The notes under the pieces are model-generated. The model had not been told where the DNA came from. It saw only the letters and a program-made list of their open reading frames with translations, and did not search any database. Shown piece after piece: positions 30,601 to 55,122 of a stretch of DNA of 64,000 nt. Position numbers and translations under genes: made by a program. The stretch lies in NCBI GenBank assembly GCA_020744425.1, contig JAGMUV010000003.1, positions 4,030,001-4,094,000 on the forward strand, given 5' to 3'. Numbering within the stretch: position 1 is the stretch's first letter; every line of letters begins with the position of its first letter. This DNA is from Dactylonectria macrodidyma (taxonomy: Eukaryota; Ascomycota; Sordariomycetes; Hypocreales; Nectriaceae).

Positions 30601-30830
30601 ATCGCCAGATCCAAGTCTTCCATGGCACCTGTCCTTGAATATCTGGTATAATATCGACCTCGTATGGGTGCAACTTGGGAGTCCCCGCCTGGGTGTTCGT
30701 TTGATGGGCTGTCTGACGTGCCACCATTTTGGACGTCAGACCTGGATCTATCTTCGTCACCGGGTGTCGTCATTGCAATCTCAGTGGTGTTGGATCGGCA
30801 GATAGTCCTGTCCATCATTGCATAACTCAA
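27633..30830 (-). CDS. TPR-CHAT protease-like protein
   Basis: A single-exon minus-strand gene of 1065 codons. Residues about 55-520 form TPR-like repeats of roughly 50 residues, each ending in phrases like DHPDRASQLYDLGAGYHDRY and DLDKAIELFEESL. The C-terminal third is a CHAT (caspase HetF-associated with TPRs) domain: VWWIPTGPLSHFPLHAAG, then FHFAGHGYTD with the catalytic His at residue 879, and LSACSTGQ with the catalytic Cys at residue 922. The final HWLEKSAGPN...WVPYIHFGV is the usual domain end. With both residues intact it is probably an active caspase/separase-fold protease. Fungal and bacterial TPR-CHAT proteins are linked to immunity and programmed cell death. A second possible start is Met20 at 30773. 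It lies among HET genes, which fits a cell-death role. Confidence 0.93.
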   Translation of the reverse strand: MSYAMMDRTICRSNTTEIAMTTPGDEDRSRSDVQNGGTSDSPSNEHPGGDSQVAPIRGRYYTRYSRTGAMEDLDLAIQLYEECVSTTPRDHPDWASLLDSLGDGYYHRYTRTEAMLDLEKAVQQFRESLNTPPSHPPEQMSHLAEVRAKYPEQYPETTECMAGEIDLSAQIQALAIGYHIRSFGTGSLPARDQTHLNRALQLYRESLANTPEHHPDRIPRLSNLGVGFFVKYVVTRDEMYLSRATELFQQCLDTTPMDHPDRALRLYKLGTIHEALYQETGSVEDINSGIRHLEECLDKTPIDDSHWPSRLRALGMGRYVRYQELNTLTDLDTVIELFQESLHATPIDHPDRASQLYDLGAGYHDRYNETRAETDLDKAIELFEESLENTPTHHHDQTSRIRSLGQAYRIRYLKKDSITDLDKAICLFEKFLEQTPRDHSDRATRLNDLAAVYNDRYQENEIRSDLDKAILLLREALNHSLSPTPDRLVAGKILLYIHAELEAWEKAQEFAQTAVHLVPSVVPRLLGAEYKQSLLSQEAGLASDATAVMLNSGKHAFHAVQLLEIGRGVISGLSYEIAADVARLLPAYPALGGRFIKLKEQLEVPTTSSPTQVMQQQDRLQGLPSIMDRPEGLDAAPQTPAEQSYIGSQLDKLIVEIRKQPGFENFLLASSEEEMRTAARYGPIVAINVSEFRCDAILIEQHQIRPLCLPLLNLNEIQLKTQQTSLDSPETLEWLWDVVASPVLEALGYTQPPADDCWPHVWWIPTGPLSHFPLHAAGYHYKQSSESVLDRVMSSYSSSIKAIICSRQQRPQQPTLGKALLLAMEYTPGNSRLPFATQEIAMLRDLFKSMPVEPIELGPCKKDVASRLRDCSVFHFAGHGYTDKEKPTNSRLVLEDIPLTVGDLLKMNLHNHPPFLAYLSACSTGQIKDDKFVDESIHLISAFQMAGFRHVIGTLWEVNDEYCVDIARYTYEGMRDKSMTDESVCYGLHMATRALRDHWLEKSAGPNRQCSGTELGSGLAPERVDRPGARGEYRRELQFSRDVVLCDDDEELRRVQWVPYIHFGV

Positions 30831-32168
30831 TGAGTGAGTGGCTCATTGCGCACAAGTAGTATGCAAACGAGGGTTGAAAGAGTCTACTTCTTCTGGAAAG
30901 GAGATGGGAGTTTGGGCACTTAAAATAACAATAAGCACCCCACAAATGGGGCTGTGCTCTGCCTAATCAGAAGGCAGAATCTTGTGGCGCATTGCTTCAG
31001 CGGTGATCGGAAGTAGTCAGAGAAGGGAACATCTTCTCGACTTATGCCATGCTGCAGCGTTGACACAAGTAGCTGAATACGTCTAGACAACCAGTCAATG
31101 CTGAGCACAGTGGAATTTTCAATCTCCTCGTATTCAAATGCCCAAGGGTTCTCTGTTCCAGACACATGCTCCCGCAGAAAGCACAGTTACACCTATTGAA
31201 GCCTTAACTCGCCTGCATCCGGGCGGGGTAGTAAGCCGTCTTCGCCCGATCTTTGTCAACCCTTGTGTATTTTCTCGCGCTCAGCATATGAAGCCCGTCG
31301 GGATGAAAGCTCGTGCGGGACATTGTGGTTCTATTGTACATGCCTGAAGATCAGCTCGCTGCTCTCCGGTTCTTTTCCTCCGGGACCTTTGGGAATTCAC
31401 GTCGTTTCCTTCGTCGAGAGTGGCCATCTCCGTTCTAGCCACGGTTACAGCCTGGTTGCGGTCCGCGTCAAGGTCCAGGTAGGGACCGCTCAGTTGAGAC
31501 TGGGGATACTCCAGGCCCTCGCCGTGCGGTTTTTCTCGAACAGCGTCAGCTGACGCTGCCATTCCGGTTTGTTTTACAGACATGATTGAGAACTCTACCG
31601 AAGATAAGGTGAAGAACCCAGATACCTGACGGATAGGATGATCCTTAGAGCCAGGAGATTGCTGGAAATAGCATAGTTTTCATTTTGCCCCAGATTCTTA
31701 CCCCGGATTCTCCACCATTCTAATGAACTGCCGACACCTAGTAGAGCGCAAAGCCGCCGATTATTAGGCCAGTGAGTCCCATGGAGTAGCAAAAGTTTGT
31801 CCTTCCGATGCCCCGAGACTGGCCACGACTCCATAATATCCGACCGAGAGCCCAGACGCTAGGGCGTTTTGGGGCTATCCGACCAAGCATTGAAGGTGTG
31901 TGCAAATATGAAATCGAACTTGCTAGTTACTAATCCAAGATTTCAAGTAAACTAGCTTTTGGTGCTGTATTGGGAAGTTATCTAGAATTTCTATGGGAAG
32001 CCTCATACTCGAATTCGCAGTAGGGGCGGGCGCTTCTCATTCACGACTTTGCTTGGAATGACCTCATTATGCTTAAAATGGGGGATAAAAGGTATTCGGT
32101 AATTAAGGAGCACCCTAGGTTATAATTGTCTGTCCTTATACCACTAACTTACAGCTCTTGAAATGCAT
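30831..32168. other. Intergenic, possible small gene not resolved
   Basis: About 1.3 kb on the 5' side of the CHAT gene. Two minus-strand frames, 31281..31583 (opening MSVKQTGMAASADAVREK) and 30920..31165 (ENPWAFEYEEIENSTVLSID), have protein-like composition and could be exons of one short hypothetical gene, but I found no splice pair that joins them in frame. Otherwise nothing seen. Confidence 0.35.
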
Positions 32169-36619: not shown

Positions 36620-38053
36620 ATGTTCGGGACTTTAATCTATGATCGGGATGGCCATGAGCCCGTCTTCGAAGCAGACGCAGCATTGCCGCCCTCAATATCT
36701 GGCACAGAATCGACGAAGAGCCCTAAAACAATTCCGAAAGCATGTGAACTCTGTCGGGCACGCAAGGTGAGTAGCATTTTGACCCACCGCGTCGCACAAT
36801 TGCTGATCATTACGTCGAGACACAGCTTCGGTGCAGCGGGGACCCATCTGGATGCGATCGATGCAAAGCATCTTCCAACGCTTGCAGATACCCCACAAGA
36901 AATTCCCGAGCCGGTAGAAAACGTCGACATATCTCGCGGGCGAGTGCGGACACCACGTACGACGGGCTTTTATCACCAAGCAGCACGGCATCAAGACACG
37001 GTGATAGTCATATGAGTGGAGATTTCAGCCAGCTGGAATGGCGGAGTTCCCGAAGTTCCACAAGTGTCGACGAGGACGCACAGCCGTCATCGACGAGCAA
37101 GTTGTTCGATGAGAACCATACGCTTGATCCCAACCTTATGGATGCCATTCTCGGTGACAATTCTCTACTCGGCAACCCCACTGAGCACGATTTCAGCAAA
37201 TTTTTTGAACCTCCTTGGCAAGATAGCCAAGTACCTGCCTCCAGCACTACTGGTTTGGGCGGGCTTTCTGACATTTCTTTATGTAAGTCAAACATTTTTT
37301 ATACATCTGGGAAATTTGCTAATACTTTCCACAGCATTGCATAATTTGTGGGGGGATGCTCCAGCTATCAAGGCATCCGACTCTGACAGTGATCTGACAC
37401 ACTGCAAGTTATCAGTGGGGATGGAGTGGTTTGGGACCATCGACACCAGCCCGGCACTATCGCCCAGCACCTCCATCGATACAATTTGCAACGGCAAGGC
37501 CAAGCACACCCATGGTGATAATTGCCAATGCCTCAGCCTCGTTGCCAGTCTCATAGAGCAGGTCGAGACTCAAGGCGGCAAACCAGACGCAAGCATTGAT
37601 GATCTGCTAGAGAGTTGTAGCGAGCCACTGACACAGTGCAAAACGCTTCTGGACTGTCAGCCCTGTAGGTCAAGGTCAGAGTACGTTCTGCTCTTGGCTA
37701 TACTAGCCAAGTCTCTTACTACTGTATTCAATAGCCTGGTACGGCTATGCGTACAGGCGGGGAAAGAAGTATCTCTTGAGGTAGCAGGACCGACCAAAGA
37801 TTGGCCTGGTTTGCGTGTAGGGAGGCACTTTGTCGATGACGCCGCAGAGAGGTCTATCGTCATTGAGATCCTGGTTGCGGTCAAGTTGAACCATCTGCAC
37901 CAGTTTCTGGTAGACCTAAAAACTCGGTCAGAGACACGGGAAGGTCCTGGAGCACTGATACTTCAGGTTGAGGAGCGTGTTAGGAACTTGAAGGCACTCA
38001 TGGCGGATAGTCAGCATAACATTTTGAGCGTTAATACACACACTAAAATCTAA
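36620..38053 (+). CDS. Zn2Cys6 transcription factor, AflR-like
   Basis: A 440-residue regulator with exons 36620..36766, 36826..37282 and 37335..38053. The binuclear zinc cluster spans the first intron: CELCRARKLRCSGDPSGC continuing DRC and NAC, giving spacing C-X2-C-X6-C-X6-C-X2-C-X6-C. A basic stretch (RAGRKRRH) follows. The C-terminal half resembles the AflR-type regulator domain: CQCLSLVASLIEQVE, EYVLLLAILAKSLTTVFNSL and VEILVAVKLNHLHQFL-like helices. Such proteins regulate polyketide and peptide clusters. It ends 510 bases before the 3' end of the isocyanide synthase gene, so it is the natural candidate for the pathway-specific activator of the cluster at 38.5-48.4 kb. Confidence 0.88.
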
Positions 38054-38563
38054 CTGCTGTGCCTTCTTGTTCCCCACAAAGTGTTGCATTTTGCGAGTAC
38101 GCTTATATCTAGCCTTCACTGTCAGGTAGCGGGATCGTCACCATACCCGATTCCAAGTAGATGTCACAACGGGGCTGCATTGCTTTAGAAAAACCCAAAG
38201 TAATACCTGAAATTTGCCCTTGGATCATAAACCTAACACGACGCCAACATGAACGCTACTAGTTGCTTCATGAAGTGCTTTAGGTGTGATCTCAATTGAC
38301 TCTTGCAAAGCTCGTTTTGAGGTAGGTGTTTGTGTTAAGCACTAACCTTTGACTCACGAAAGACGTAAATTGGTAATAAGAAATTTGTCTTGATCAATTT
38401 AGCGATGTATCTAAGCCGTCGACCGGAAAGAAGGCCCGCAGACTAACAAGTTTGAACTCCACTCCTGTATATCTAGGCCGCCACAACAACGGTAGCGCTA
38501 TCTTGTGGGTAACTGTAAAAGTTTGACATAATGAAACGTGATCTATGCATCCAAATCCACCAG
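38054..38563. other. Convergent intergenic region
   Basis: 510 bases between the convergent regulator and isocyanide synthase genes, presumably both 3' UTRs. Nothing else seen. Confidence 0.5.
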
Positions 38564-39810
38564 TTACTTGTCCTCTACTGAAGCCTCGGTGGGCTCAGGC
38601 GCCTTCTCTTTGAAGTAGCTAGGTCGGCCGTCCTCGTAGACAATTTCCATCTTGGAATCGTCCTTGAAGTCACCCATTGGGGAACTCATCCACTCGCCAT
38701 CTGCCATCAAAGCTACGCTGCAATGCCATGGGGTCGTGAAACCGGTCTTGGTGTTGAGCAGGCTCATCGACACTTTGTGCTCGCCGGTGGATTGATGAAT
38801 CGAGAGGCGCAAGTGGTTGGGGAATGCGGACTTGACTGCCCCTGCGAAGGCCTGGTTGGGAATATTGGTTAGTATGGAGGTGAAAATTGTCTGGAACCAA
38901 GAAAAGGGCGCTGGGGAGATTATTTGTTGGGTAAAAAGGACACACTTACATATCCTCGAATCAACATTTCCTTCGCCAAGAACTTGACGTTCTTCTTGTA
39001 TCCCTTGATCGATCGACCTTTGCCAGAGGGGAAAACATGCTGCAAATCAGACTCGAGGAATCGTCGGTAGCCACGGTACGTCATTAGAGTGTCGGGGTTG
39101 GTGGCGATCTCATGGTCGATGTCTAGATCCTCCTTTCCATACTTGTTGAGGAGGTATCGTCGGAAGTTGGTGGCGTTAGCGACATAGGTGATCTCCTCCA
39201 GCTTCTCCGGGAGAGGGAAGTTGACCAGGTCTCGGAGACGGGAGAAGTCAATGTTGGCGAAGCCCTTCTCGAGCGCCATAGCGCGCAGAGCCTGGCCGTA
39301 TGCCCAGACATCCTTGTCAGGGATAGTAAGCAGGTCTAAATTGCGATTGAACATATTAGCGAGCTGCTACTAGTAGAGCATTAACAGGGCGTTGTTTCAC
39401 ATACCGTTGTAGACGAGGCCATCCGAGATGATGGTAAGCTTGGCACCAGGCTCATATACTTGCCCGATGCGAGTGCACATGGTGTTCAGGCGCTCCATAG
39501 CCAACTCCTCGGCCTTGTCGGGCAAGATGCCGAACACCTTGTAGACCCGGTTTGCCGACTTGAAGGGAAACGCTGGCAGGCACATCTCGACCTGCTTTCC
39601 AGCGATGACGAACTCATCGATGACAGCGAGGAACTTGGGGATGCCAGCGGCAAGCCTGTCTACGCTGTCGTCGAACTTGTTCAGGGCGTACTCGTAGATA
39701 ATGGACAGGATCTTGGCAGAGGTCTCGGTGGCATCTTGGAGAGAATGGGGTGCCTTCTCCAAGTCCGAGGCGACTCCTGTGGTGCTTGCGATGGGGGAAA
39801 GGACCTGCAT
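38564..39810 (-). CDS. Isocyanide synthase (DIT1/PvcA family)
   Basis: A 359-residue stand-alone isocyanide synthase on the minus strand with exons 39405..39810, 38950..39335 and 38564..38851. The family signatures include PAFPFKSANRVYKVFGILPD, the motif EPGAKLTIISDGLVYNDLL (joined over intron 1) and VWAYGQALRAMA, then YRGYRRFLESDL, the central GYKKNVKFLAKEMLIRGYAF and the late RLSIHQSTGEHKVSMSLL with TPWHCSVAL. Enzymes of this family convert the amino group of an amino acid to an isonitrile using ribulose-5-phosphate. Fungal forms occur in dit, xanthocillin and crm-type loci. Unlike CrmA it is not fused to adenylation or transferase domains. Unlike XanB-type proteins, as I recall them, it carries no extra dioxygenase domain. 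The start MQVLSPIAST was chosen as the first ATG after a pyrimidine-rich leader. It is divergent from the adenylating enzyme at 40668. Confidence 0.9.
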
Positions 39811-40667
39811 GTTGGGCGGTGGATGAAATGAGTTGATTGAAATGGGTTGTAAGTGAAGAGAAAGGTAGTGATGAAGGATGATTTGAAAAGAGAGGATGAT
39901 TCTGTAAGTTAGGCCATCATATATAGTGCGAAGCTCTTCTGAAGCGTGCTGTATCTTTGAGCAAGTTAGCAACGCACGTGTTGACCAGCTTTGCCCACGT
40001 AGCGGTGACTGACACTCCCAAACATTACGCGACTCATCCCCAATGAGAACACCGCGATGTCAAACTCCGAGCATCGCGACACCGTTCCAATGACAAATGC
40101 CGCTTTCGTCCGTCCCCGCGTCGGCCGCGATGCCGAACACAGCCCCCGACAGCCCCGGATTGCTTCACCGGCAATCTTACACCCCCGGGGACAGTGCATT
40201 GCTCCTTTTGGCGTCCGTCCACCCTATGTTAGGCCTTATTCAGACTGTCGGAGTTTTGAAATTTAGGGGCCCGAGGCAGAGGTGTCAGCTTATCGCTGAT
40301 CTGGGCTGTGAGATCAGCTTACACTCGGCGCGCCCAAAGCGGAACGCCGAAGGAGAGTGCCGGGACGCTTTGCCGCAATTGCATCAAGGTTTGATCTAAT
40401 TCGGCATCCTGATCTGGAATTCAATCATTTCGATTCTCCGAGAAATATTGGCCATTTTGTAAGCGCGAATTTCTTAGGATAGATGTGTCGTGAATGAGGA
40501 GGCAACAATGGCGCAGCACCAGTGCCTTTACTTGTTGCTTTCATATGAGTATTACTTAAGACGAGGCTGAACCATGTCGCTATCTACAAAATCTACAGCG
40601 AATTTGTTTCCAACTGAGCTCGAAATCAATCATTCAAACATCGTTTAGATCTGTTTCTACCATTACC
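39811..40667. promoter_or_regulatory. Divergent promoter, isocyanide synthase / adenylating enzyme
   Basis: 857 bases separate the two start codons, so both cluster enzymes are probably controlled here. The coding-strand octamer CTTGCTCA (39958..39965, minus) lies 148 bases before the isocyanide synthase ATG and resembles the copper-responsive Mac1-type element. CCG/CGG-rich stretches at 40100-40200 could bind the Zn2Cys6 regulator. These sites are inferred. Confidence 0.45.
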
Positions 40668-43600
40668 ATGGATGCCTCACAGGACTACGGTAAGAGGTTG
40701 ATCCCTCAGATCCTAGACAACCTCGCCGCGGTCGACCCAGGCCGAATCATTTACTCAGTAGCCAAGTCTGCAGACATTTCCGAGGGATTCTTACACGTAT
40801 CTGCGCGCAGTTTTGCCAACGCCGTGAACAAGACGGCTTGGTGGCTGCAGAATGAGGTTGGAAAGAGTACAACGTTCCAAACGGTGGGCTATATCGGGCC
40901 TCGTAAGTGGGAGAAGGCTTTGTGCGCTAGAGAAGAGTTTGGAATCGATTCACTAACTATACGAAGATGACCTTCGACACATTCTTTTGACGTACGCCTG
41001 CATCAAAACTGGCCACACAGTAAGTTGCGTCGCTGTCCTCTCCACCAAATTCACTCGACTGACCCAACTTTTCCCTGCAGGCGTTGTTCCTCTCCCCTAA
41101 GAACAGCGTCGAGGGCGCTCTGGCCGTACTCAAATCCACAGACTGCAACATCTGGGTCAAGCCCCGCGAGCAGCCTCGTCTCCCGCAGGTAGACGAATAC
41201 CTGCGCCACCGCCCGCTCAATATCCTCGAGATTCCAGAGACCGAGGAGCTCCTCGATGCTGATACGGTAGAACACTATCCTTATGACAAGACGTGGGATG
41301 AAGCGTCCACAGACCCGTTTTGCGTGCTGCATAGCTCGGGCTCGACTGGGCTGCCGAAGCCTATAGCTTGGTCGCATGCGCTTATAGGTACGATGGATGC
41401 TGTGCGACTTCTGCCACCGACGGAGGGAGACAATGGGATGCTTCCGTGGACAGCGGGGTGGAAGGAGGGTGACCGGATATACTCGTCATTCCCCATGAGT
41501 CATGTGCGTTTTCCGTCCTTGACCACCGAAGACCTTCTTGCTAATAATTGCGACACTTGCAGGGTGCGGGTGTCATCATGGACATCCTCGTCCCATCGCT
41601 CTTCGGCATGCACTGCATCCTCGGACCCATGGGCGTAATCCCCAACATGGGCCTCATCGAGTCTCTTGTGGATCATGGAAAGATTGATGTATGGAGCATG
41701 GTTCCGTCCCTCGTCGATGAGTTGGGCGAAACTCCCGACGTTTTGAACAAGTTTGCGTCGTCCAAGTTTATATGCGCATCTGGCGGTAAGATTTCTCAAG
41801 CCTTTGGTGTTTGCGATCGCGCTGACAGTCACACGAAGGTCCCATTAGTCCCATCAGCTCCGCAAAGGTCAACAAAGTCGTCCGCGTGCTGAACTTGACC
41901 GGCACAACAGAAGGCCTTTTTATTGGCAATCTCGTAGTAGACAGGGAGGACTACTTCTACTTTGCGTTCCACCCCTACTCTGGCTTTGAGTTCAGAGAGG
42001 TAGAGCCTGGGATATATGAGCATTGGATGCATCGCGACGACAAGCTGTCTTTGTTCCAGGGGATTTTCCACACCTTTCCCGACCTGCATGAGATTAACAT
42101 TAAAGACTTGTATGTCAAGCACCCCACGAAACCATATCTCTGGGCATATAAGGGACGAAGCGACGATCTTGTGGTCTTGTCCAACGGGTATAAAATCTCG
42201 CCTTTGGACACGGAAGCTTTTATCACTACGCACCCTGCAATCAACGGCTGCCTCGTAGTAAGTTTTCTTATTGTTTATTCTCTCCGCCGTCTAAACTCAC
42301 ACATTGTGATCAGGTCGGAACTGGAAAACCGCAAGCTGCTCTTCTCATCGAGCTGAAAGACCCGTCAGCTGCGAATGAAGAGCTTCTCGAAAGCATCTGG
42401 TTAACTGTGCAAAAGGCAAATGCGTCCTCTCTGCATAAGAACCAGCTGCACAAGGACTACATCATGTTCGCAGAGGCAGACAACCCATTCGTGCGCACAG
42501 ACAAAGGAACCGTCAAGCGCCGCGCCACTCTGACGGCCTACAATGACTACATCGATCGTTTCTACGATACGGCGTCGGGAGAATCAGATGCGGATCTTTC
42601 CATCACGGTCGATACCACTTCGATTGAGTCCATCACCAACGCCGTCCGCCACATTCTCGCCTCCTTGCTACCCGCGTTCGAACACGCCTCGGACGACGCA
42701 GACATCTTCAACCTCGGACTCGACTCGCTGCTCGTCTTCCGGGCCATTCGGTCGCTGCGGACGGCTATGGGGCTGCAAGAGCAGCTGGCCCCAAGGCATG
42801 TGTACGGAAATCCTACCATTGGCAAGCTCTCTGCTGCCCTCGTGCAGCTCGTGGCTGGCGCAAAGACGTCGAACGGAACTTCCGAGCTTGATGAGAAATT
42901 GGCCAAGATGAAGGAGCTTCTCGGCAAATACAAATCCCGGCAGTCGCTGAAGATGAACGGATTCGACTTGATCATGCCCAAGCTCTACGTCAAGATGATG
43001 GTCTACATTCCTCTCCGCGAAGGCGTCAACTTCGAAAAGGCTTATTTCGGATTGCAGCGAGGTTTCGCCCGTATGCTGGAGGTCGTCCCGACTCTCGACA
43101 CAAAGATCATGTTTGACTCTGAAGGCGAAGATGGGTACAAGAAAGGCCATTTGCGGACCGAGTTTCCAACGCCTCCATCGCCGCCTTGGGGCAGCGATGT
43201 CAGCGGTCCTGGTCACGGCCCAAGACAGTTGGCCTACAGAGACCTTTCGAGCATTCTCCCACCATTCAAAGAGTTGCGAGACGCCGGATTCCCATCCTCG
43301 GCCTTCAAGGACGAACTCGTTCTCGCAGCTCCTTGGTTTCCGACCTTCCCTGCAGACATCATGACAGCGCAGGCCAACTTCGTCCAAGGCGGCTGTCTGC
43401 TCGCTATGGGATTCAGCCACCCTTGCTTTGACGGGATCGGGGTTGTGACGGCCATCAGGATCTGGGCCGAGAGCTGCAGATACGTCCAGGGAGATGAGTC
43501 TGCAACGTGCAGCTGGCTGGACCCCGAGAGCATGAACCGCAGCCTTCCACAGGTGCTGTGGGAGCAGGAAGGATACGCCCGGCCGGTTGAGGAGATTGAT

Positions 43601-44497
43601 CCCGCGACGTGGGGATTTCTTGGGTTTGCGGCACCTGGAGATGAAAGCGCTGCTATCAACGGAAATGGCTCGGCCAAAGTCGAGACCGTTTCTCAAACAT
43701 CAACTCTTCCACCTGCACCCGTTCTTCCACCGTCACCAACTCTTCCTCCACCAACCAGCGAGAAAGACCGCCATCTGGAGTCAAGCGTATTTTACATCTC
43801 CCCAGAGAACCTAGAGAAGCTCAAACAAGAGGTAGCTGCCGATCCTGAGGCCAAGGGCTTGGTGTCGTCAGCGAGCGACATCGTGCAGGCCTTGTTCTGG
43901 CGGACCGCGATTAGAGCACGGTACCGTCTAGCACAAGAGCGTGATGGCAAGACATTTGGACGCGACGAGATGTCCATTCTGGAACTGCCCATCGATGTTC
44001 GGCCTTATTTTTCGCCACTACTCCCGTCGACGTACATGGGGAACATGATCGTCATCAACCGTCCGACCATGCCAATCGAAACACTCTGCTCACCAGGGGC
44101 AAGCATCGGACGCATCGCTCTTCTCATCCGTGAAGCAGCCGCGCGCATCCGACCGTCGCTCGTCCACGACGCCTTCACGCTGCTGCAGACGGTGCCCGAT
44201 TATAACAAGCTTCGGTACGCATTCATGCGCCTGGAGGGCATGGACACCATGATCACCAACATGATGCTGTTCCCGACGAGTGAGGTAGCGTTTGGAGGGG
44301 AGTTCTTTGAGAATGGAGGCGCTGCAGATGGCGTGCGACCGTTGATGGACGGCTTCAACACAGGATTCCGGTTGGATCTTATCCTGCCGCTGCGCAAGAA
44401 TGGTGGAGTGGAATTGTTGTTTGGGTTGTTTCCAGAGGAGTTGGAGATGATGCTAAAAGATGAGGAGTTTGCGAGATATGCTCAGATTGTGTCATGA
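40668..44497 (+). CDS. NRPS-like enzyme: adenylation-thiolation-acyltransferase
   Basis: A 1178-residue enzyme with six exons: 40668..40902, 40967..41019, 41081..41503, 41563..41785, 41839..42257 and 42314..44497. Residues 1-560 form an adenylation domain with the AMP-binding loop LHSSGSTGLPKP near residue 181, LTGTTEGL, and YLWAYKGRSDDLVVLSNGYK. A carrier domain follows with NLGLDSLLVF; the phosphopantetheine serine is residue 589. The C-terminal 520 residues are a BAHD/trichothecene-acetyltransferase-like domain with HPCFDG (His820, Asp824) as the HxxxDG motif. No condensation or reductase domain is present. A low-complexity Pro/Thr linker (PPAPVLPPSPTLPPPTS) interrupts the transferase domain. 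It would activate an acid, hold it as thioester and transfer it to an alcohol or amine. The same A-T-transferase order follows the isocyanide synthase domain in CrmA, as I recall. Confidence 0.9.
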
Positions 44498-44838
44498 GTG
44501 CGGACGCATGCAGGATATTGTGAGGTTGCCTGGCAGCAAGCGTTGAACAAGTTGGAACAGGTAGCACTGTGTGTTCAGCACAGTCAGCCACGAGTAAATT
44601 TGAATACAGAATAGAACGCCGCGTCTTGGTACTGCAGAAGTTTTAATGGAACACGATGATAAAGGTAACCCTTGTGGTAAACGCTCTCAGTGGCAGGCAG
44701 CATGCAGAAATGAGTTGAAAGAGCGTGACTCCACCACACCGACTGAGTCATTGAACCACCTTCATCATCATCATCAGCATCATCATTTCATACCAACTCT
44801 GGCGCAAAAAGATCGGTTCTACTCACCACCCAGGCCTA
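44498..44838. other. Short intergenic region with ATC repeat
   Basis: 341 bases between the adenylating enzyme and the CDC123-like gene in tandem. It holds an interrupted (ATC)n run at 44762..44786, likely in the 5' UTR of the second gene. Confidence 0.5.
44762..44786. repeat. Interrupted trinucleotide (ATC)n repeat
   Basis: TCATCATCATCATCAGCATC continues with ATCAT; about eight triplets with one G interruption, 53 bases before the CDC123-like start codon. Confidence 0.8.
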
Positions 44839-45786
44839 ATGCGATTAGCAAATATGAAGCTGAATATTGTCGACTACAATGATGTGCAGCTAGATCTCGA
44901 CACTGGCGTGCCAACCAACTTCAACACCAACTTTCATACTGCAGATGAGGCGCCAGACCTACCCATACCGACTAACAAACCGTACTCGTTTGGTAGATGG
45001 CTTCCACTGATTCTGAGCTCGCGCGGCCTAAATGCTGCAGCTGTGCAAACTGTGCGCCTCTCGCGCGCGCAGGTCCGCATCGCCGTGGAAGCTGCTGGGG
45101 CGTCGGTTCACACCCGTGTGCTGAATCGGGTCTACGCTGAAGATCTCGAGGAAGAAGTGCATTCTGCTTTCGGCGGCCTATCGTTTCCAAAGGAAGGACT
45201 CTTCATGCGGCTCGGAGCATGCTCTCCCAAGGACGGCGCTCACACTGTCCCTGGGCAATTGTCGCTGCACTCGATTAACGACATCATCCTTCGCCTCACG
45301 ACGTCTGGACGTGCCTTAACGACTTTCAACAACATGCTCAACAGCGACGCCCAAGACATTCGTATTTTCTTCCTACCGTTTGACGCGAGAATGAAGACGC
45401 AGAGAGAATATCGGGTTTTTTGCGTCCCGGGTTCGCTGCGGATCAGCGCCGTCAGTCAGTACCAGTGGCACAAGCCCTGGATGTTTGCTGGCAAAAGTGT
45501 CGAGGAGCGGGGCGCGATTGCGAGGCGAATCATGGCTGGAATTGAGGAGCTGCACGCCAAAATCATGGGCGATTTACGAGGCGACGAAGATGACGTGCTA
45601 TTGGCGCAGCAGGGCTTTACGTTTGACGTGCTTTACGATGAGGAGAGGGAATGCTGTGAGTTGATTGAGCTCAATACGTTTGGGGTGAGGAGTGCGTGTG
45701 GCTCGTGTTTGTTTCATTGGGTGAAGGACCGAGATTTGCTGTATGGGCAGGATGCTGAGGACGTGGAGTTTCGGGTGGCTGTATAA
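44839..45786 (+). CDS. CDC123-like (D123 family) ATP-grasp protein
   Basis: A single-exon gene of 315 codons; the ATG at 44857 (MKLNIVDYND) is an alternative start. The family features are FGRWLPLI near the N-terminus, LFMRLGACSPKDGAH (compare the SPRDA/SPKDA block of D123), REYRVFCVPGSLRISAVSQY (compare EFRCFV...AISQR) and GFTFDVLYDEERECCELIEL followed by NTFG and a Trp-containing segment. True Cdc123 assembles eIF2 and is encoded elsewhere in every eukaryote, so this divergent copy is probably a specialised paralogue. ATP-grasp enzymes can form amide bonds, which makes a ligase role in the cluster conceivable. It lies between the adenylating enzyme and the transporter, all on the plus strand. 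Confidence 0.78.
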   Translation: MRLANMKLNIVDYNDVQLDLDTGVPTNFNTNFHTADEAPDLPIPTNKPYSFGRWLPLILSSRGLNAAAVQTVRLSRAQVRIAVEAAGASVHTRVLNRVYAEDLEEEVHSAFGGLSFPKEGLFMRLGACSPKDGAHTVPGQLSLHSINDIILRLTTSGRALTTFNNMLNSDAQDIRIFFLPFDARMKTQREYRVFCVPGSLRISAVSQYQWHKPWMFAGKSVEERGAIARRIMAGIEELHAKIMGDLRGDEDDVLLAQQGFTFDVLYDEERECCELIELNTFGVRSACGSCLFHWVKDRDLLYGQDAEDVEFRVAV

Positions 45787-46520
45787 ATAAACGATTCAAC
45801 CTGCATGTGATGATGGAATTCAGGGCTATTCAGTGGTAATTCGACGTGCGGTAATTGATCTCAGTGGCGGCGCTATCATTGGTGGTTGAATCCAGGGTTA
45901 ATCAGAGCTGGCGGGGGAACCCAGTCATCGCTTATTCAAAACTTGCTCACCATCTCACCCACAGAGTATAATAATGAATTGAAGAACAACCAGAGGTGTA
46001 CCCTGAAGAGCGTTAGGCTAGTGGCCATATAAAAGAAGTGACCTGTACTGACTCCTCATTTTGGTGAAAGCAGATGTACTCGTCTCCAGTGTTACACACT
46101 GCTCGCGCGGCAGAATCAAAGGCGGCCCGCTCGAAACATCCTTGAGACACAGCCCCAAATCAGCGAATTAGCGAACGAATGGCCCGCGACATATTAGCCG
46201 CATGTACCCCTTGCTCACCTATGCAAGGAGCCTTTGTTGGTGGCTGTCAGCATGCTGCGGCACAGTGAACTTTGAAACAATACGCTCGGTGGCGCAGAGA
46301 TGTATCGTATTATCCGAAGGCCCTCGGATCTTAGCAAAAGTACAGTCAGCACGAGTGGCCACGTCGACTCGCGATTCCAGCCTACTGTTGCGGTTCATTC
46401 TTCTCCCATCTCACCCTCTAGATGGGGACCCGTCGCATGTCCGCAATTTAACGCGTAAATCACATGGGAATTGGTTTTAATCTACATGGTGATTAGCAGC
46501 CTTCATCTCAGACGCGCACC
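45787..46520. promoter_or_regulatory. Upstream region of the cluster transporter
   Basis: 734 bases with no coding sequence. The octamer CTTGCTCA occurs twice (45942..45949 and 46210..46217); the same octamer is upstream of the isocyanide synthase. It also occurs at two unrelated places in the window, so the association is weak. Confidence 0.35.
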
Positions 46521-48353
46521 ATGGCGATACCGCGTTCGGATCGCCGAGACTCTTCCGACACGGATGTAGATAGCCTCAGCACCGGCCATGGCAAGGGCTC
46601 ATCCGACCGCATGAGAGGCATCGACGATGCAGACAACGACGCAGACCCCGCGGGCGAGGGTGCGCGTTTCCTGCCCATGGATATAGACGACGAGGGCGCT
46701 GCAGCTGCTCCCAACGAGGTCCCCAAGTCCACCCAGCGCTATGTCATCCTCATGTGCGTGCAGTTCCTCTTCATCGTCGAGTTCAGCATGTTCATCATGG
46801 AGCCGCCGCTGCAGCAGATCATGGAAGACTTTGTCTGCCACGCGCGCTACTCAGATCATCGCACAGGTGTGACGCAGACGCCCGATGAGCGTTGCAAGGA
46901 CGCAGATGTGCAGGGCACGCTGGCTATGGCGAGGTCGTGGATGATGTGGGTTGGGATGCTGGTTCGTGAGTATCCCCCATCATGGCTGGTGCTATTAATG
47001 AACCAATGCTGATATTGTGTCGTTGTAGCTTTGCTCGTTCAGATTCCATACGGCATTGTTGCCGACAGATACGGCCGTCGCCCGGTCTTGTTTCTTGGCC
47101 TGTTTGGACTTGTGCTCGGCACAGCATGGTACATGATAGTCTGTAAGTCGCCTTCTGCCCATCGCTCTCCTCCAAATCTCGACTCATTATCTCTAACTCG
47201 CTTCAACAGTGTACCACCCAGATGCATTCTCCATATGGCACCTTCTCCTCGGCTCCATCCCCACCCTAATTGGAGGAGGCGGCTCCGTCGTGACAGCCAT
47301 GGTCTGGACCATCCTGTCCGATTCCATCCCAGCCGCCAGGAGAACCTCACTCTTCTACCAGCTGCACGCCATGATGCTCATCCTCAGCGCTGCCTTTCGT
47401 CCCGTCGCCGCCTGGCTGCTCAGCATCGACCCGTGGCTGCCCATGTGGATCGGCCTTGCTGCCCTTGTCGTCAGCATGTTTTCAACCTTGCTCATCCCTG
47501 AGACGCTACATCTTCACAAGTTGGCTGATGAGGAGCGCCGGAGGATGGACCGGGTAAACGGGCATCTCGCTGACGACGGTGAGCTGCTGAAAGCAAAGCA
47601 AAGCGTCATTCAAACTGCCTGGAGCACGACGCGAAAGGACTTTTCCCGGATTTGGCATTTCATGGCCAATTCAAAGCACATCATCCTCCTCATTGTTGCA
47701 TATGGTCTCTGCTATCCCATCAACATTGCCTTTGAAATGAACATGCTCCAGTACGTGACCAAGAGGTTTAACTGGGACTGGTCCACGGTAGGCACTCATC
47801 CCTTCTTTACCGCCATAGATTTCATGCTCACTTTGCTCCACAGGCAACGTATTTTACTACCATCTCCAAGGTTACGTCCGTCATCGTCCTATTGGTTCTT
47901 TTGCCCCTCTTATCCATCTTCATCACAAAGCGCTACCAACTGGAGATCTTGACCAGGGATTTGTATCTGTCCCGCGGCTCCATTCTCTTCATTACTGCCG
48001 GCAACATGTTCACTGCCGTGGCAGCAGCACCTTGGATGCTGGTCATATCCCTCATCGTCCTCAGCCTCGGTAACGGCTTCCAGCCACAGCTTCGCGCCCT
48101 GCTCGCGGGGATAGTGGAACCGCACACCTTGGCAACCCTCAACACGACCATTGCGACGTGCGAAACACTTATCGGGCTTGTTACCGTGCCGGCACTGGGG
48201 TGGCTGCTAAGCAAGGGCATCGATCTCGGAGGCGTCTTGATGGGCTTGCCCTTCGCGATGACGTCCGTCTTCGCCGTATTGGCCTCGGTGGCCATGTTCA
48301 CCTTTAAACTCCCCCGGGGAGTTTCTCAGGCTGACGGTCGTTACGATCATTAG
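46521..48353 (+). CDS. MFS transporter of the isocyanide cluster
   Basis: A 548-residue major facilitator protein with exons 46521..46965, 47029..47142, 47210..47787 and 47844..48353. A 70-residue acidic N-terminal tail (DADNDADPAGEGARFLPMD) precedes helix 1 (YVILMCVQFLFIVEFSMFI). Motif A is GIVADRYGRRPVLFLG between helices 2 and 3. Other landmarks are GGGGSVVTAMVWTILSD (helix 4-5), the central loop after LLIPETLHLHKLADEER, YGLCYPINIAFEMN (helix 7) and LGNGFQPQLRALLAG. About 12 helices are predicted by eye. Position at the end of the cluster suggests export of, or self-protection from, the isocyanide product. Uptake of a metal-product complex is also possible. Confidence 0.88.
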
Positions 48354-48738: not shown

Positions 48739-50978
48739 CTAGACGAGGACAATGTCCGAGTATTTCTCAGGGTCATCAATCAACTCCTCGTCTCCATGCA
48801 GCGAACTCGTGCCAATCCGTAGATTTCCTAGCCTCCTGAATCGTTTGCCCGCAGACATCGTTGGGCTCTCTGCAGTAACAGCATCCACGATGATTGCGAT
48901 ATATACCCAGCCCTTATGACCAGAATAGGCATTCAAAGACTGCGTCTTTGACAGAACTAGCGCGAATAGTTCCTTGTCCTGCACCCATCTTCTCGTCTCC
49001 TCCGTCTGCCCCAAAACCCCGTCGAACATGGCGTGGACTCCGAACGGGTTGCCATGGGGCGAGCACAGCCGGATGTTACGGCGAAAGCCCTCCGGGAGCT
49101 GCGCCTCGTCCTCCTCTGGCTGCTCACTTAGGTGTAACTTCAACATGGGTGCTTTCAGGCTGACCCAACCGTCCGTCAGCTCTCCAAACGGGTTTTGGTT
49201 GTTCTTCAGCGTTACGCTCCAGTCGGTGACCGTCGCCACGTCTACCCAGCCCGAACTCGTTTTTCCGTGCGCCGACTTCCCGCTGTACGACGCCCAGCTC
49301 CAAGTCGGCGCGATATATCCTGGCTCTCCCGCCAGAGGCAACTCGTCTGGCAGATAGTAGTCGTCTCTTTTATTGCCAAGGCTTTGCCAGCCTAAGCCTT
49401 CCACGATGGCGTCACTCCAGAGTCCAGCTACATATTTGGTGTCAGCTGCTGTATCAGCGTCGCCATCCGAAACTCTTTTGGCCCTCAACCTTCCTCCGAT
49501 GAGACTCGCTAACCCTGAAATGGCCGGAAGCTGATCAGTCTCCAAGGTCATGTTCCGTCCCGTAAAGTCTTCCAGAATGAAATACCACAACTGGTGAATT
49601 TCACTGTGCCCGGATATGCGAGCAATCTGGGTAGATGACGGATCAGGTCCTTCATACATCGAGTTCCAGCGGCCGGGGGCCACAGCGCCGTCTTCCGAGA
49701 CAAAGTGGCGATTGCACTCAAAGAAGAGTTGATCCGATGCAAAGTGGAGAATCCGGTACCCAAGAAGACGTTCCTGGAGAGCCCAAGCTCTAGATGTGAG
49801 GGGCTCATCGTATAGCTCGAGCAAACTGCGCTGATAGACGACAGGAAGTGTGGGAGCATCGTATGCCAAAGCGGGTATGGTCGTGGACCCTGGGCTGGCT
49901 CCCTCGTTGAGAGATGAGACGGTCAACTTCACGGGTACATAGTCCCTTTCTGGCCTTCGGAATATGCCCTTCGTTGTGCTGTCTGCACTATCGGCAGCAA
50001 TTACCACATGGGCTTTGGCATAGACACCCGCCATAGCTGCGGATTCCCGTGCCCAGTCGTCGCCGTCGTCTTGACAAACACACAGCGAATCAATCCAAAG
50101 GTATCTAATGTCAAGATGACGCGTGACCTTGATAGCGTCTTGGAATGTTTTCGGGAGGCTCTCCACCGCAACGCCGCCAACATACTCTGGGAGAGTGTCC
50201 CGAGTCATCTTCATGTGGCCTGAGGGATTGGTTCCCCAGCAGTGGCTGAGCGCGATGTAGCGACCTTTCTGGCTACCGTCGGTTTCGACAAGACATACTT
50301 TGTCTAGATTATCGAGAAGATTGAGGTCAATGACGCGGGAGGGTAGCGCGCCGGTTGGAGGCTGACAGCACTGGTGGTTCGTGACACAATCATCCAGCCA
50401 GCTGGCTGCCAACTCCAAAGGCCCCTTAGCCGAAGCATCTGGGCCGATTTTCTGACTTCGGATGAAGCTAGAGTATTCTAGTCGTGTCAGTTAACATGAC
50501 TGCTGCGAAGAAATCAAGCCAAGGCAGACATACCGCGCTCCGCAGAGAATCCGATCACCGCGACCAGATATAAAACTTTGTCTCTATGGCTGTTAGTGAA
50601 GACCAAAAATCCGTCGCCCCCATCAAAGCGCCGCACGATCCTGAAGCTTGATTCCACTGGCAACCCATGGCCTCCGCGCTCAATGCTAAAGTATCTCTCA
50701 ACAGAACCTAGCTCTAACTTTTGAAACTCAGTAACTAAGCCTTCGAATTTCTGCAAAATAAGCTGGCAAAGGGGACAGTCGCGTGAGGATTGAGCTAGAG
50801 ATTCAAGGCTGGAATGATACGGCAAGCCAACTGTGTCCCAGGAATCTGTCGCATCTGGATCGAGCCGAAAGTGATTTCGAGTGCCGATGGTCCCAACCTG
50901 ATGCCACCAGGATTTTGACATTTCAGGCAGTGTGGACGGAACCAACAAAGCAGCCCGGCAGTTGGAGCAAGCTGACAT
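48739..50978 (-). CDS. HET domain protein
   Basis: A 727-residue HET protein on the minus strand with exons 50534..50978 and 48739..50477 (56-base intron). The HET domain at about residues 215-370 has RYIALSHCWGTNPSG, SLPKTFQDAIKVTRHLDIRY followed by LWIDSLCVCQDD, and MAGVYAKAHVVIAADSA; later ALQERLLGYRILHF is also typical. The N-terminus carries Cys pairs (CSNCRAAL and CPLCQLIL), possibly metal-binding, as in many HET proteins of this subtype. The C-terminal part includes PTWSWASYSG. A role in non-self-triggered cell death is the family expectation. It sits directly beside the biosynthetic cluster but has no obvious biosynthetic role. Confidence 0.93.
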
Positions 50979-52478: not shown

Positions 52479-53061
52479 GGTGGCGACGTGGAGTGTGATT
52501 GCGATGACGTCGAGTTCGATGAATGAGAGAAATTGGCAATCATCGAAATGTTGCAGGTCAGCAACACATAAGTTGTCTCATGCTGAGCAGCACGTGCATC
52601 TAGGCATAATATCACAATGAGGTAGGCGTACTATCTATAATTACAGCACTCCAGAGCGCCAGGCCTTTTGCCGGTTGTTCCGCCCGCAGCAACTTGTCCC
52701 ACCAACAGCACTGTGAAACTGGAAGAATGCAAGAATGCAGTGGGCATTACAGGGGATGATCTGTCGATCCTGGCCCATGAATGACGGCTGTCAGCCCTAG
52801 CCAACTCGGTTGGGTCAGACTACTCAGGCCGCAGCAGTGGCTGTGCAATGCTACGCCTTCGTCTCACAAGTCACAATCGCACAGAGAGAGGGAGGGCCGC
52901 CGTAGAAAGTAGAGAGTCAATTGTCCAGGTTTTGATCGGGAAACGAACATTTAGTATGCTTTCATAATGAACCAGCGCATTGTAATTAACGTCTTGATCA
53001 GTTCAACGCCAGCATTACTGGGGACTTCTCCACTCAGCGCCGAGTCTTTCTGCTAAACACT
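52479..53061. other. Divergent intergenic region
   Basis: 583 bases between the membrane-protein gene and a HET gene, transcribed divergently. No coding sequence or repeat stands out. Confidence 0.5.
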
Positions 53062-55122
53062 ATGTGGCTCTTCAAATCCAAAACACCAGATCTCACCTCA
53101 ACAGTCAAAGGCCTCGATCGCCAAACCGTATGCAAAGGCTGCAACCGAATCGAGGTCCTGCTAGATGGAACTCAACAGAAAAAGGCCACTATTCCCGGGC
53201 GTCTTCTGTTCCATAAAGACTATGCAGAGCTGGAGAGGTGCGCTAATAATTGCCACACTTGTCGCGTCTTCCGCCAGGCGCTGCTTTTACAATGTGCCAC
53301 TATTCACGACGCGGAGCAACTCCGCGTAAGGACTGCCGGGTGTGGAGTCTACGCGCGTGTTCGGTACTCTGATTCAGACGGCATGAATCCCATTAGCATC
53401 AAGATCGAGCTCCGCAACTGCCCAGAGCCATCAGCATGGATTCGGTGCGGCGTGGACATGGCTCAAGCGCAGGCCCTTAATCTTGCCGAAAATCCTAATG
53501 GTGACCATACCCGACGTCAAGTGCTCAAATGGCTTGACGACTGCAACCTTAAACATAGTACAACATGTTTAGGTCTACGGTGGTCATCAGAGAACCCATC
53601 TCGCCTCATTCGAATTATCTCCGAATCAGAACTCCAGCTATGCACGTTGCACATACCAACAAAATACGTGGCTCTCAGTTATTCCTGGGGAACCAAGGTC
53701 CTGACCGAGCAAGATGTGCTACTGATGGAACGGGGTCAAACAACACACAACAACATAAAGTCTCGCCATGATTCGTTTCCACTCAGTGATCTTCCCTCAA
53801 CTCTGCGCGATGCCATCTCCTTCTGTCGACTCATCGGCCTTTCTTACATCTGGGTCGACTCGCTCTGCATCATACAAGACGCCAACGACCGAACCGACTT
53901 TGCACGGGAAGCGCCCAAGATGCACCAATATTACGGCAACGCATACTTTACCCTCGCCGTGTGCTCCAACTTCAAAGCCACTGATGCGCTCCTGGCCTCT
54001 CGGACGGCATTCTCTCATCCCATCAGAGCCTCCAGCTTAGGCGGTCTCTGGATTTCCACTCCGGATCGCTCCATGGCGGAGATGCTGTCTCATTCCCCAC
54101 TATCAAAACGCGCCTGGACATTGCAAGAAGAAAGCCTATCTCCGAGAATACTATACTGGACACCACAAAGAATGTACTGGTCCTGTGCGCAAGTCCAACA
54201 TATCGAGTCGGCGGTACAAGAACGGCCGGCCTCCTCTAACTCGGATTCGAGTCTAGCATCTTCTCCAGGACCACAGGCATTTTTGCTCTCCTGTAACCGC
54301 GGCACCTCGGAAGCTCGCCATACTGAGTGGCTCTCTCTTATAGAATCCTACACGCTGCGCGACATGTCCGACTCTACCGATCGATTTCCCGCGTTGGCGA
54401 GTCTTGCCTCGAAATACAAAGATAGCGCCACCAAGGAGGAAGAGTACATTGCAGGTCTTTGGAAAGCTTCCTTTGCTCATGATCTCTCCTGGACTGTCAA
54501 AGCCCCCGCCTTTAAGAGTCCGGACTTTGGATCGAGTGTCCCGCCATCATGGACTTGGGCTTCGCTGCCTGTCTGCACAGGGGTGCAATTGTCCCGCCAA
54601 TTCAATGATGGCCACCGATTGGCTCTTCTAGAGATTGGTTTACCGGAGCAAGTACGGAAGCAAGCAGACAGTACAGACACTGTACAGTGCGGCTCGCTCG
54701 TCACGCATGTTCGCGTACGTGCTCGTCTGCGTCGGTTCTGGGAGGACAGTGCAGAATATCGGCCTTGGTCCATGATTATCTCAACGCTCCAGCAAAACGA
54801 TAATATGACACTGCCACTGACACACGGCTTTAACTTTTCGAGTACTCCTCAGCAGCCTGTATTCTCGGCTGATGTTGCGAGCGGCAAGGTGGTCTCGTAC
54901 GAAGCAAGGAAGCAGGAAATTGTCGGGCAGCTGGACTACACAGTCTATGCGACCAAGATTGGTGACTTGTCCCTCCATATCTACGCCATGGAGATTGCCG
55001 AGAGTTCAATGATGCTGCTCGGAAAATTAGGTGAAGGGAGGTTCCGACGCGTCGGAATAGTGACAAGCTACAGGCCTGATTTCTTCGACGAGGCAAGCGA
55101 GGCAGATATTATCCTTCAGTAG
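53062..55122 (+). CDS. HET domain protein
   Basis: A single-exon gene of 686 codons. The N-terminus has a Cys pair (KGCNRIEVLL and CHTCRVFRQALL). The HET domain at about residues 200-345 reads YVALSYSWGTKVLTEQD, DLPSTLRDAISFCRLIGLSY followed by IWVDSLCIIQDANDR, and MHQYYGNAYFTLAVCS. A later SKRAWTLQEESLSPRILYW is the third conserved block, and SVPPSWTWASLP is the usual C-terminal motif. It lies in a HET-rich region with one more HET gene 2 kb away on the other strand. Confidence 0.93.
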   Translation: MWLFKSKTPDLTSTVKGLDRQTVCKGCNRIEVLLDGTQQKKATIPGRLLFHKDYAELERCANNCHTCRVFRQALLLQCATIHDAEQLRVRTAGCGVYARVRYSDSDGMNPISIKIELRNCPEPSAWIRCGVDMAQAQALNLAENPNGDHTRRQVLKWLDDCNLKHSTTCLGLRWSSENPSRLIRIISESELQLCTLHIPTKYVALSYSWGTKVLTEQDVLLMERGQTTHNNIKSRHDSFPLSDLPSTLRDAISFCRLIGLSYIWVDSLCIIQDANDRTDFAREAPKMHQYYGNAYFTLAVCSNFKATDALLASRTAFSHPIRASSLGGLWISTPDRSMAEMLSHSPLSKRAWTLQEESLSPRILYWTPQRMYWSCAQVQHIESAVQERPASSNSDSSLASSPGPQAFLLSCNRGTSEARHTEWLSLIESYTLRDMSDSTDRFPALASLASKYKDSATKEEEYIAGLWKASFAHDLSWTVKAPAFKSPDFGSSVPPSWTWASLPVCTGVQLSRQFNDGHRLALLEIGLPEQVRKQADSTDTVQCGSLVTHVRVRARLRRFWEDSAEYRPWSMIISTLQQNDNMTLPLTHGFNFSSTPQQPVFSADVASGKVVSYEARKQEIVGQLDYTVYATKIGDLSLHIYAMEIAESSMMLLGKLGEGRFRRVGIVTSYRPDFFDEASEADIILQ

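What the first reader, a model, noticed from the sequence alone, without database searches (positions are those of the whole stretch)
36620..48353. Isocyanide biosynthetic cluster with a split CrmA-type architecture
Seen: a DIT1/PvcA isocyanide synthase (38564..39810, minus) is divergent from an adenylation-thiolation-acyltransferase enzyme (40668..44497, plus), next to a Zn2Cys6 regulator, a CDC123-like protein and an MFS transporter. Known (from memory): in Aspergillus fumigatus CrmA these four catalytic domains form one protein in a copper-responsive locus. Inference: here the pathway runs with two separate enzymes, so the isonitrile product must pass from one protein to another, or the separated form is ancestral. 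The product would be an isocyano amino-acid derivative that is activated and acyl-transferred.
Basis: partly seen in the sequence, partly recalled or inferred. Interest (0 to 1): 0.88.

Follow-up and report, generated by a model that had tools for sequence, protein, structure and literature searches.

The report
Split isocyanide synthase gene pair
A plant-associated fungus carries the two halves of a copper-linked isocyanide-making enzyme as two separate, back-to-back genes; this separate form is already known from related fungi, and tree evidence suggests it is the older one from which the well-known fused enzyme arose, probably more than once.

Summary
In Dactylonectria macrodidyma a three-exon isocyanide synthase gene (ICS, 38564-39810, minus) lies head to head with a six-exon adenylation-thiolation-transferase gene (A-T-Tr, 40668-44497, plus). 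Opposite strands exclude a mis-annotated fusion; the catalytic motifs checked are intact.

The ICS groups with CrmA-type enzymes, not dit or ICS-TauD forms. The split is not new: it is in print for Fusarium (PMC10153163), and a Fusarium oxysporum cluster with separate genes is Mac1-bound and copper-regulated (PMC11563359). Same-contig pairs occur in four ascomycete classes.

The rooted ICS trees place the main CrmA clade inside a separate-gene grade. One clade of all fused forms is rejected (p-AU 0.002 and 0.023 in two row sets), because fused protein P0143 nests in the window's clade. So separation looks ancestral, with at least two fusions.

A second split locus (C16) has an acyltransferase and a TRI12-type transporter beside it. 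The 9-mer ACTTGCTCA, found upstream of two copper transporter genes, lies in the shared promoter and upstream of the MFS gene. The CDC123-like gene is probably a bystander.

Likely function: ICS makes an isocyano acid, which A-T-Tr activates and esterifies. Product untested.

The parts
36620..38053 (+). Zn2Cys6 transcription factor gene (exons 36620-36766, 36826-37282, 37335-38053), neighbour; possible pathway regulator
   Evidence: model; Zn_clus 19.7 bits vs cut-off 21; no Mac1-type site in its 600 bp upstream; role not tested
38564..39810 (-). monodomain isocyanide synthase, 359 aa, exons 39810-39405, 39335-38950, 38851-38564
   Evidence: PF05141 340 bits; P0001 100%; PvcA 3e59 homology; crm group
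39811..40667 (.). shared divergent intergenic region (857 bp), candidate bidirectional promoter
   Evidence: gene models; sequence
39958..39966 (-). ACTTGCTCA, candidate Mac1-type copper site in the shared promoter, about 150 bp from the ICS start
   Evidence: same 9-mer upstream of 2 of 4 copper transporter loci; 759 copies in 77.3 Mb
40668..44497 (+). adenylation-thiolation-acyltransferase (A-T-Tr, counterpart of the C-terminal part of CrmA as a separate enzyme), 1178 aa, 6 exons
44854..45786 (+). CDC123/D123-like protein, probably a flanking bystander
   Evidence: 22.6 bits vs 24; among listed relatives beside or on one contig with an A-T-Tr only in Dactylonectria and Cylindrodendrum; no Mac1-type site in the 356 bp upstream
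45941..45949 (+). ACTTGCTCA, second candidate copper site, 572 bp upstream of the MFS start
46521..48353 (+). MFS transporter, 548 aa, 4 exons; candidate exporter of the product
   Evidence: MFS_1 72.4 bits; no TRI12 match, unlike the C16 transporter

Best explanation
The locus is a two-protein crm-type isocyanide pathway. Shown: intact ICS and A-T-Tr genes, divergent, with the sequence signatures and ancestry of the two halves of CrmA. Inferred: ICS converts a free amino acid (L-valine in the CrmA precedent) and, as in PvcA-type enzymes, one carbon of ribulose-5-phosphate into a 2-isocyano acid; this small acid leaves the ICS, is adenylated and loaded on the carrier serine by A-T-Tr, and is transferred by its HxxxD acyltransferase to an alcohol such as mannitol, giving an isocyanide or N-formyl ester of the fumicicolin/brassicicolin kind. 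The pair descends from the unfused ancestral form, and the fused CrmA arose later by joining the two genes. In this genome it is one of two such split loci; C16 resembles the known copper-regulated crm cluster, and the window copy is a paralogous lineage with other neighbours, probably also under copper (Mac1-type) control through the shared promoter.
For: Domains and motifs; transferase His and Asp and carrier Ser in 120 of 120 rows (64 separate incl. window, 56 fused), A5 LNLTGTTEGLF unchanged in 64 of 64 separate. The A4 His aligns with that of 4-coumarate-CoA ligase; the Asp that in amino-acid A domains binds the alpha-amino group (recalled) is a Gly, fitting a substrate whose amine is already an isocyanide. 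ICS in the crm group, not dit/TauD: (91/95). Main fused clade inside the separate grade; AU tests; A-T-Tr tree with two fused groups. Co-inheritance: Mantel r 0.678 over 23 pairs, 0 of 4999 permutations as high. Copper motif. Free (S)-2-isocyanoisovaleric acid detected in small amounts with crmA overexpressed, and isocyanide use by a second pathway: PMC9381783 passages. Separate A-T-Tr FOXG_09770 (= P0196) and the ICS gene both Mac1-bound and up without copper: PMC11563359 section 7. Ribulose-5-phosphate route: abstract start of PMC7949033 in a listing.
Against: No expression, product or enzyme data for this locus. The outgroup branch is long (0.83; long-branch warnings) and the base of the ICS tree is unresolved. 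The A-T-Tr tree has no outgroup. In larger sets the label needs more changes: 6 in the 126-row and 60-row ICS trees, 4 in the 91-row A-T-Tr tree; part of this comes from four 'mono' ICS inside the main fused clade, which look like cut-short fused genes. The single-clade test weakens from p 0.0021 to 0.0226 with the larger row set. One ACTTGCTCA in 857 bp is a modest signal (0.008 expected from the genome count), the exact A. fumigatus MacA site TGTGCTCA is absent from the promoter, and by the looser Fusarium consensus one site is near chance (0.28 expected). The Mantel correlation also follows from shared species history; only 10 of 23 pairs have the same nearest neighbour in both sets. No crmB, crmC or crmD counterpart was recognised in the window.
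Confidence: 0.7

Rival explanations
1. Secondary fission: the ancestor had a fused CrmA and the window lineage broke it into two genes.
For: Fused CrmA is widespread. Four shortened ICS rows (P0054, P0067, P0080, P0090) do fall inside the main fused clade, so fused genes can lose their A-T-Tr part or be modelled without it. Cylindrodendrum hubeiense has separate (P0122; P0201, whose model lacks about 155 N-terminal residues) and fused (P0155) forms.
Against: The four shortened rows keep CrmA-like linker or the start of an A domain; the window ICS ends without one. Rooted ICS trees put separate forms at the base. One derived separate clade is rejected (p-AU 0.0018; 0.00011). A fused ancestor would need several independent fissions.
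Confidence: 0.11
2. Paralog with a new job: C16 is the working crm locus, while the window pair makes a different isocyanide (other amino acid or other acceptor), perhaps under its own Zn2Cys6 regulator.
For: Two split loci in one genome. ICS copies are 79% identical, A-T-Tr copies 62%; the transferase part has diverged more (0.56) than the A core (0.70). C16 has a PF02458 acyltransferase and an MFS/TRI12 transporter, the window does not. C16 has three Mac1-type sites within 84 bp.
Against: A-domain motifs are nearly the same in both copies; the copper-gene 9-mer occurs at both loci. Compatible with the best explanation rather than exclusive.
Confidence: 0.14
3. Chance neighbours: the ICS and A-T-Tr have no joint function.
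For: C16 keeps the two genes in another order and orientation, about 2 kb apart, so order is not conserved.
Against: Separate genes lie on one contig in four classes, are fusion partners at least twice, and both are Mac1-bound in F. oxysporum.
Confidence: 0.05

Closest known systems
CrmA / crm cluster of Aspergillus fumigatus
   Same: ICS and A-T-transferase of the same families; same catalytic motifs; A-T-Tr domains 50-71% identical to CrmA P0210
   Different: two divergent genes instead of one protein; no crmB, crmC or crmD counterpart recognised in the window
GCF 8, monodomain ICS beside a crm-type NRPS in Fusarium (PMC10153163, sections 18, 20, 21 read)
   Same: separate ICS and A-T-Tr near each other; same evolutionary reading given by those authors
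   Different: other group in the A-T-Tr tree than the Fusarium pair members P0184 and P0192 (P0184; that these belong to GCF 8 is my inference). Most BGCs with both NRPS-like and terpene synthase genes are GCF 8; no terpene synthase among the 30 window ORFs and models scanned, which do not cover every exon
crm cluster of Fusarium oxysporum (PMC11563359, section 7 read)
   Same: separate A-T-Tr gene FOXG_09770 beside the ICS gene; Mac1-type core TGCTCA
   Different: has crmB, crmC and a hydrolase; its authors describe the crmA product as ICS-NRPS-like
PvcA-type bacterial isonitrile synthases
   Same: homologous over residues 63-349 (3e59, 115.7 bits)
   Different: named tyrosine/tryptophan enzymes in the databases; the window ICS is far below that model's cut-off (136 vs 600 bits)

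Membership tests
crm-type ICS | DIT1_PvcA domain whose sequence groups with the CrmA ICS | tested here: met
   PF05141 340 bits; group 91/95, one side in 94% of bootstraps, against own dit-like, TauD-type and tandem ICS and PvcA (with a long-branch warning for the other rows)
crm-type ICS | partner A-T-transferase with crm motifs | tested here: met
CrmA proper (ICS-NRPS hybrid) | all four domains in one polypeptide | tested here: not met
   genes on opposite strands, each with its own start and stop
crm cluster | crmB, crmC, crmD neighbours | tested here: not met
   not recognised by Pfam in the window; C16 has a PF02458 and an MFS/TRI12 gene; orthology to crmB/crmC not tested by sequence
crm cluster | copper/MacA (Mac1) control | tested here: inconclusive
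   ACTTGCTCA in shared and MFS promoters, same 9-mer upstream of 2 of 4 Ctr loci; exact TGTGCTCA absent from the promoter; no expression data
GCF 8 (Fusarium) | monodomain ICS plus separate crm-type NRPS | tested here: met
GCF 8 (Fusarium) | Fusarium-specific, often with terpene synthase | tested here: not met
   Dactylonectria; no terpene synthase among ORFs scanned; different group in the A-T-Tr tree
dit superfamily | dit-type ICS next to a P450 | tested here: not met
   groups apart from the own dit-like C9 locus, which has a P450 about 3 kb away
xan / ICS-TauD | TauD dioxygenase domain after the ICS | tested here: not met
   single PF05141 hit; own C52 and C17 loci have TauD
all of the above | isocyanide product | not testable with these tools
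   needs LC-MS or enzyme assay

The most novel reading that the evidence does not exclude
The crm pathway began as two proteins, spread as two proteins through at least four ascomycete classes including lichens, and was fused at least twice independently in the same domain order: once giving the well-known CrmA clade and once (P0143) inside the window's own clade. D. macrodidyma keeps two old, unfused, copper-linked copies, so natural fused and unfused versions of one isonitrile hand-over can be compared directly.
Probability: 0.52. Interest if true: 0.58.

Novelty: new member of a known kind. Interest (0 to 1): 0.42.

Why it matters
It suggests that CrmA chemistry does not need one multidomain protein, so the isocyano acid can act as a free, shared intermediate; this fits its use by ergot alkaloid chemistry in A. 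fumigatus. It widens the split crm form beyond Fusarium and offers natural fused and unfused pairs to ask why enzymes of reactive intermediates become fused. Genome mining that requires ICS and NRPS in one protein would miss such loci.

Tried and rejected
Considered and rejected: mis-annotated single gene (opposite strands); dit-type ICS; CDC123-like gene as core cluster member (listed relatives in Trichoderma, Thelonectria and Paramyrothecium are on contigs other than those of the listed ICS and A-T-Tr of these genera); exact MacA site TGTGCTCA and yeast Mac1 site TTTGCKCR in the shared promoter (window counts at chance, none in the promoter). Zn2Cys6 half-sites, inverted repeats and shared 9-mers with most other promoters gave nothing clear. 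A first Mantel run on untrimmed proteins gave r 0.378; trimmed domains gave 0.678. The 9-mer ACTTGCTCA was first noticed because several promoters shared it and only then checked at copper transporter genes; the window counts are therefore partly after the fact. The AU test without P0143 was named after seeing a tree.

Rows dropped: ICS 176 to 122 by redundancy, plus 4 own-genome rows; then 52 chosen by hand. That choice left out four 'mono' rows lying inside the fused clade (P0054, P0067, P0080, P0090), so searches put them back with P0019, P0072, P0170 and P0236 (60 rows). A-T-Tr 119 to 90 plus window, then 41 by hand. P0216 (partial ICS plus A-T-Tr) was left out of both classes.

Papers: PMC10153163 sections 17, 18, 20, 21, 31 and passages; PMC9381783 Discussion and passages; PMC11563359 section 7 and passages; PMC5974471, PMC6514546, PMC11433043, PMC12420764 passages only; the others search listings only. 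Literature searches for isocyanide with Dactylonectria, isocyanide synthase with Fusarium and crm, and with lichens listed no paper that, from title or opened passage, describes this locus; most listed papers were not opened.
Full report
What is there. The window lies in Dactylonectria macrodidyma (Sordariomycetes, Nectriaceae), contig C23 of a 77 Mb assembly. Gene models give a three-exon ICS of 359 aa on the minus strand and a six-exon A-T-Tr of 1178 aa on the plus strand, 857 bp apart and divergent. Pfam finds DIT1_PvcA in the first and AMP-binding, AMP-binding_C_3, PP-binding, TRI-like_N and Transferase in the second. Because the genes lie on opposite strands, this cannot be a fused gene split by annotation. 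That caution matters: A. fumigatus CrmA was found to be one mRNA encoded by two annotated genes (PMC5974471, passage).

Activity signatures. Over 120 A-T-Tr rows (64 separate including the window, 56 fused), the transferase His and Asp of HxxxD and the carrier serine are present in all, and the A5 block LNLTGTTEGLF is unchanged in all 64 separate rows. The A4 block reads FPMSHGAG in the window; its His aligns with that of 4-coumarate-CoA ligase. From general knowledge of A domains (recalled), an Asp after this position marks enzymes for alpha-amino acids; here it is Gly in 63 of 64 separate and 55 of 56 fused rows, the rest being gaps. That fits an acid whose amine is already an isocyanide. 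The ICS aligns with PvcA over the LPAFP-KS-N, SDG, RLSIH and TPWH stretches.

Which ICS is it? PF05141 matches in this genome fall into ten genes by my grouping. Two loci, the window and C16, have an A-T-Tr beside them; tblastn found none in the 20 kb fetched at C52, C7 and C17 or the 10 kb at C9, C13 and C28. C52 and C17 carry TauD, C9 has a P450 about 3 kb away and looks dit-like, C13 and C28 each hold two ICS. In a tree with PvcA as outgroup the window, C16 and CrmA forms are one group (91/95); the tool warned of long branches among the other rows.

Fused or separate first? In the ICS tree rooted on C52/C7/C17 (52 rows), separate ICS form a grade and the main CrmA clade (21 rows, 100/99) sits inside it, within a 33-row branch of fused and separate forms (96/81). 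Holding all 23 fused ICS as one clade costs 46 log units (p-AU 0.0021); holding all 26 separate ones together costs 49 (p-AU 0.0018); fused without P0143 is not rejected (p-AU 0.354). My choice of rows had left out four 'mono' ICS that the 126-row tree put inside the main fused clade. With these and four more rows back (60 rows) they stay there; P0054 and P0080 end in the start of an A domain and P0067 and P0090 in what looks like CrmA linker, so I read them as cut-short fused genes or models. In this set all fused plus the four as one clade gives p-AU 0.0226, the same without P0143 0.46, and the 28 other separate ICS as one clade 0.00011; P0143 stands with the window, Ilyonectria and Paramyrothecium (91/85).

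In the A-T-Tr tree (41 rows, no outgroup) fused forms need two changes: 18 fused rows together (98/98), and P0143 inside the window's six-row clade (100/100). The 91-row quick tree needs four changes, two forced by well-supported branches, with P0141 and P0170 loosely placed. Two independent fusions are the simplest reading, one of them in the window's own clade. P0143 comes from contigs of up to 5.7 kb of unnamed origin and reads straight through a linker rich in Ser, Pro, Ala and Thr; a prediction artefact is not excluded. The outgroup branch is long and the base unresolved, so 'separate first' is likely, not proven.

How common is the split? Of 120 A-T-Tr relatives listed, 56 are fused, 63 separate and one partial. 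By eye, 21 of the 63 share organism and contig length with a listed separate ICS, 13 of these on contigs under 300 kb, 8 with consecutive locus tags. They span Sordariomycetes, Lecanoromycetes, Dothideomycetes and Leotiomycetes (class looked up for one species each; other species placed from recall). Distances between ICS and between A-T-Tr correlate over 23 pairs (these 21, the window and C16), r 0.678, 0 of 4999 permutations as high; nearest neighbours agree in only 10 of 23, and P0033/P0213 on one 2.6 Mb contig is probably not a true pair. Cylindrodendrum hubeiense has two A-T-Tr listed as separate (P0122, and P0201 with a short N-terminus) and one fused CrmA (P0155).

What is already in print. 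PMC10153163 (section 20) states that GCF 8, the closest relative of crm, has a monodomain ICS co-localised with an NRPS of crm domain type, and proposes fusion in some lineages; section 21 calls it Fusarium-specific. PMC11563359 (section 7) lists the F. oxysporum cluster crmA, crmB, crmC, FOXG_09770 and FOXG_09772, with Mac1 sites in most of its promoters and its genes up without copper (crmA and FOXG_09770 were too variable for its main list). FOXG_09770 is P0196: an A-T-Tr with no ICS domain. The window is therefore a new member of a known kind, from another group and genus.

The second locus. C16 has, in order, a PF02458 acyltransferase (minus), ICS (minus), A-T-Tr (minus) and an MFS/TRI12 transporter (plus), much like the F. 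oxysporum set; crmB and crmC orthology was not tested. Match breaks suggest introns at the same places in both copies. ICS copies are 79% identical, A-T-Tr copies 62%; the A core is better kept than the transferase (0.70 vs 0.56), which suggests the same building block and a freer acceptor.

Copper. The F. oxysporum Mac1 consensus is DHNTGCTCANNN. C16 has three matches at 817694-817777, between the ICS and the acyltransferase frames. The 9-mer ACTTGCTCA occurs three times in the 1.5 kb upstream of one Ctr copper transporter match of this genome and once upstream of another; the other two Ctr loci have none there, one of them with two other Mac1-type sites. Genome-wide there are 759 copies in 77.3 Mb, about 0.008 expected in 857 bp. 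The window holds two: one in the shared ICS/A-T-Tr promoter and one upstream of the MFS gene, none upstream of the Zn2Cys6 or CDC123-like genes. On window composition alone two copies are not rare (15 of 100 shuffles). I read this as moderate support for copper control and for the MFS gene as a cluster member.

Mechanism. CrmA makes (S)-2-isocyanoisovaleric acid; it was seen in small amounts in a crmA overexpression strain, not in wild type, and reacts with an intermediate of another pathway (PMC9381783, passages). [quoted passage not shown] I propose that the A-T-Tr is that activity, in cis in CrmA and in trans here. Amino acid, acceptor and product at this locus are untested.

Noticed in passing
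P0011, P0021, P0023, P0026, P0028, P0030, P0052, P0065: A third layout: crm-type ICS joined to the N-terminal part of a PDR-type ABC transporter (PF14510, P0026 also PF00005), mostly lichen fungi, five of them (P0011, P0021, P0023, P0028, P0030) with a separate A-T-Tr on the same contig; one F. oxysporum ICS (P0065) also has the PF14510 match.
   Followed up: partly
G000:C1:2635574-2636514: Three ACTTGCTCA copies within 941 bp, a candidate copper-responsive promoter elsewhere in the genome.
   Followed up: no
G000:C13:504190-507352 and G000:C28:508979-512742: Two loci each with two ICS genes and an amidase gene nearby, pairwise related between the loci.
   Followed up: no
window 6776-7834, 22000-24447, 48739-50490, 52990-55119: Four HET-domain frames in 64 kb.
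   Followed up: no
window 27636-30842 minus: TPR plus CHAT domain frame of 1069 aa, possibly an NLR-like or caspase-like incompatibility protein.
   Followed up: no
window 44854-45786: D123/CDC123-like family of about 310 aa with 205 relatives found; many listed are Sordariomycetes, and part of them carry the precomputed Pfam D123 match. Function unknown.
   Followed up: partly
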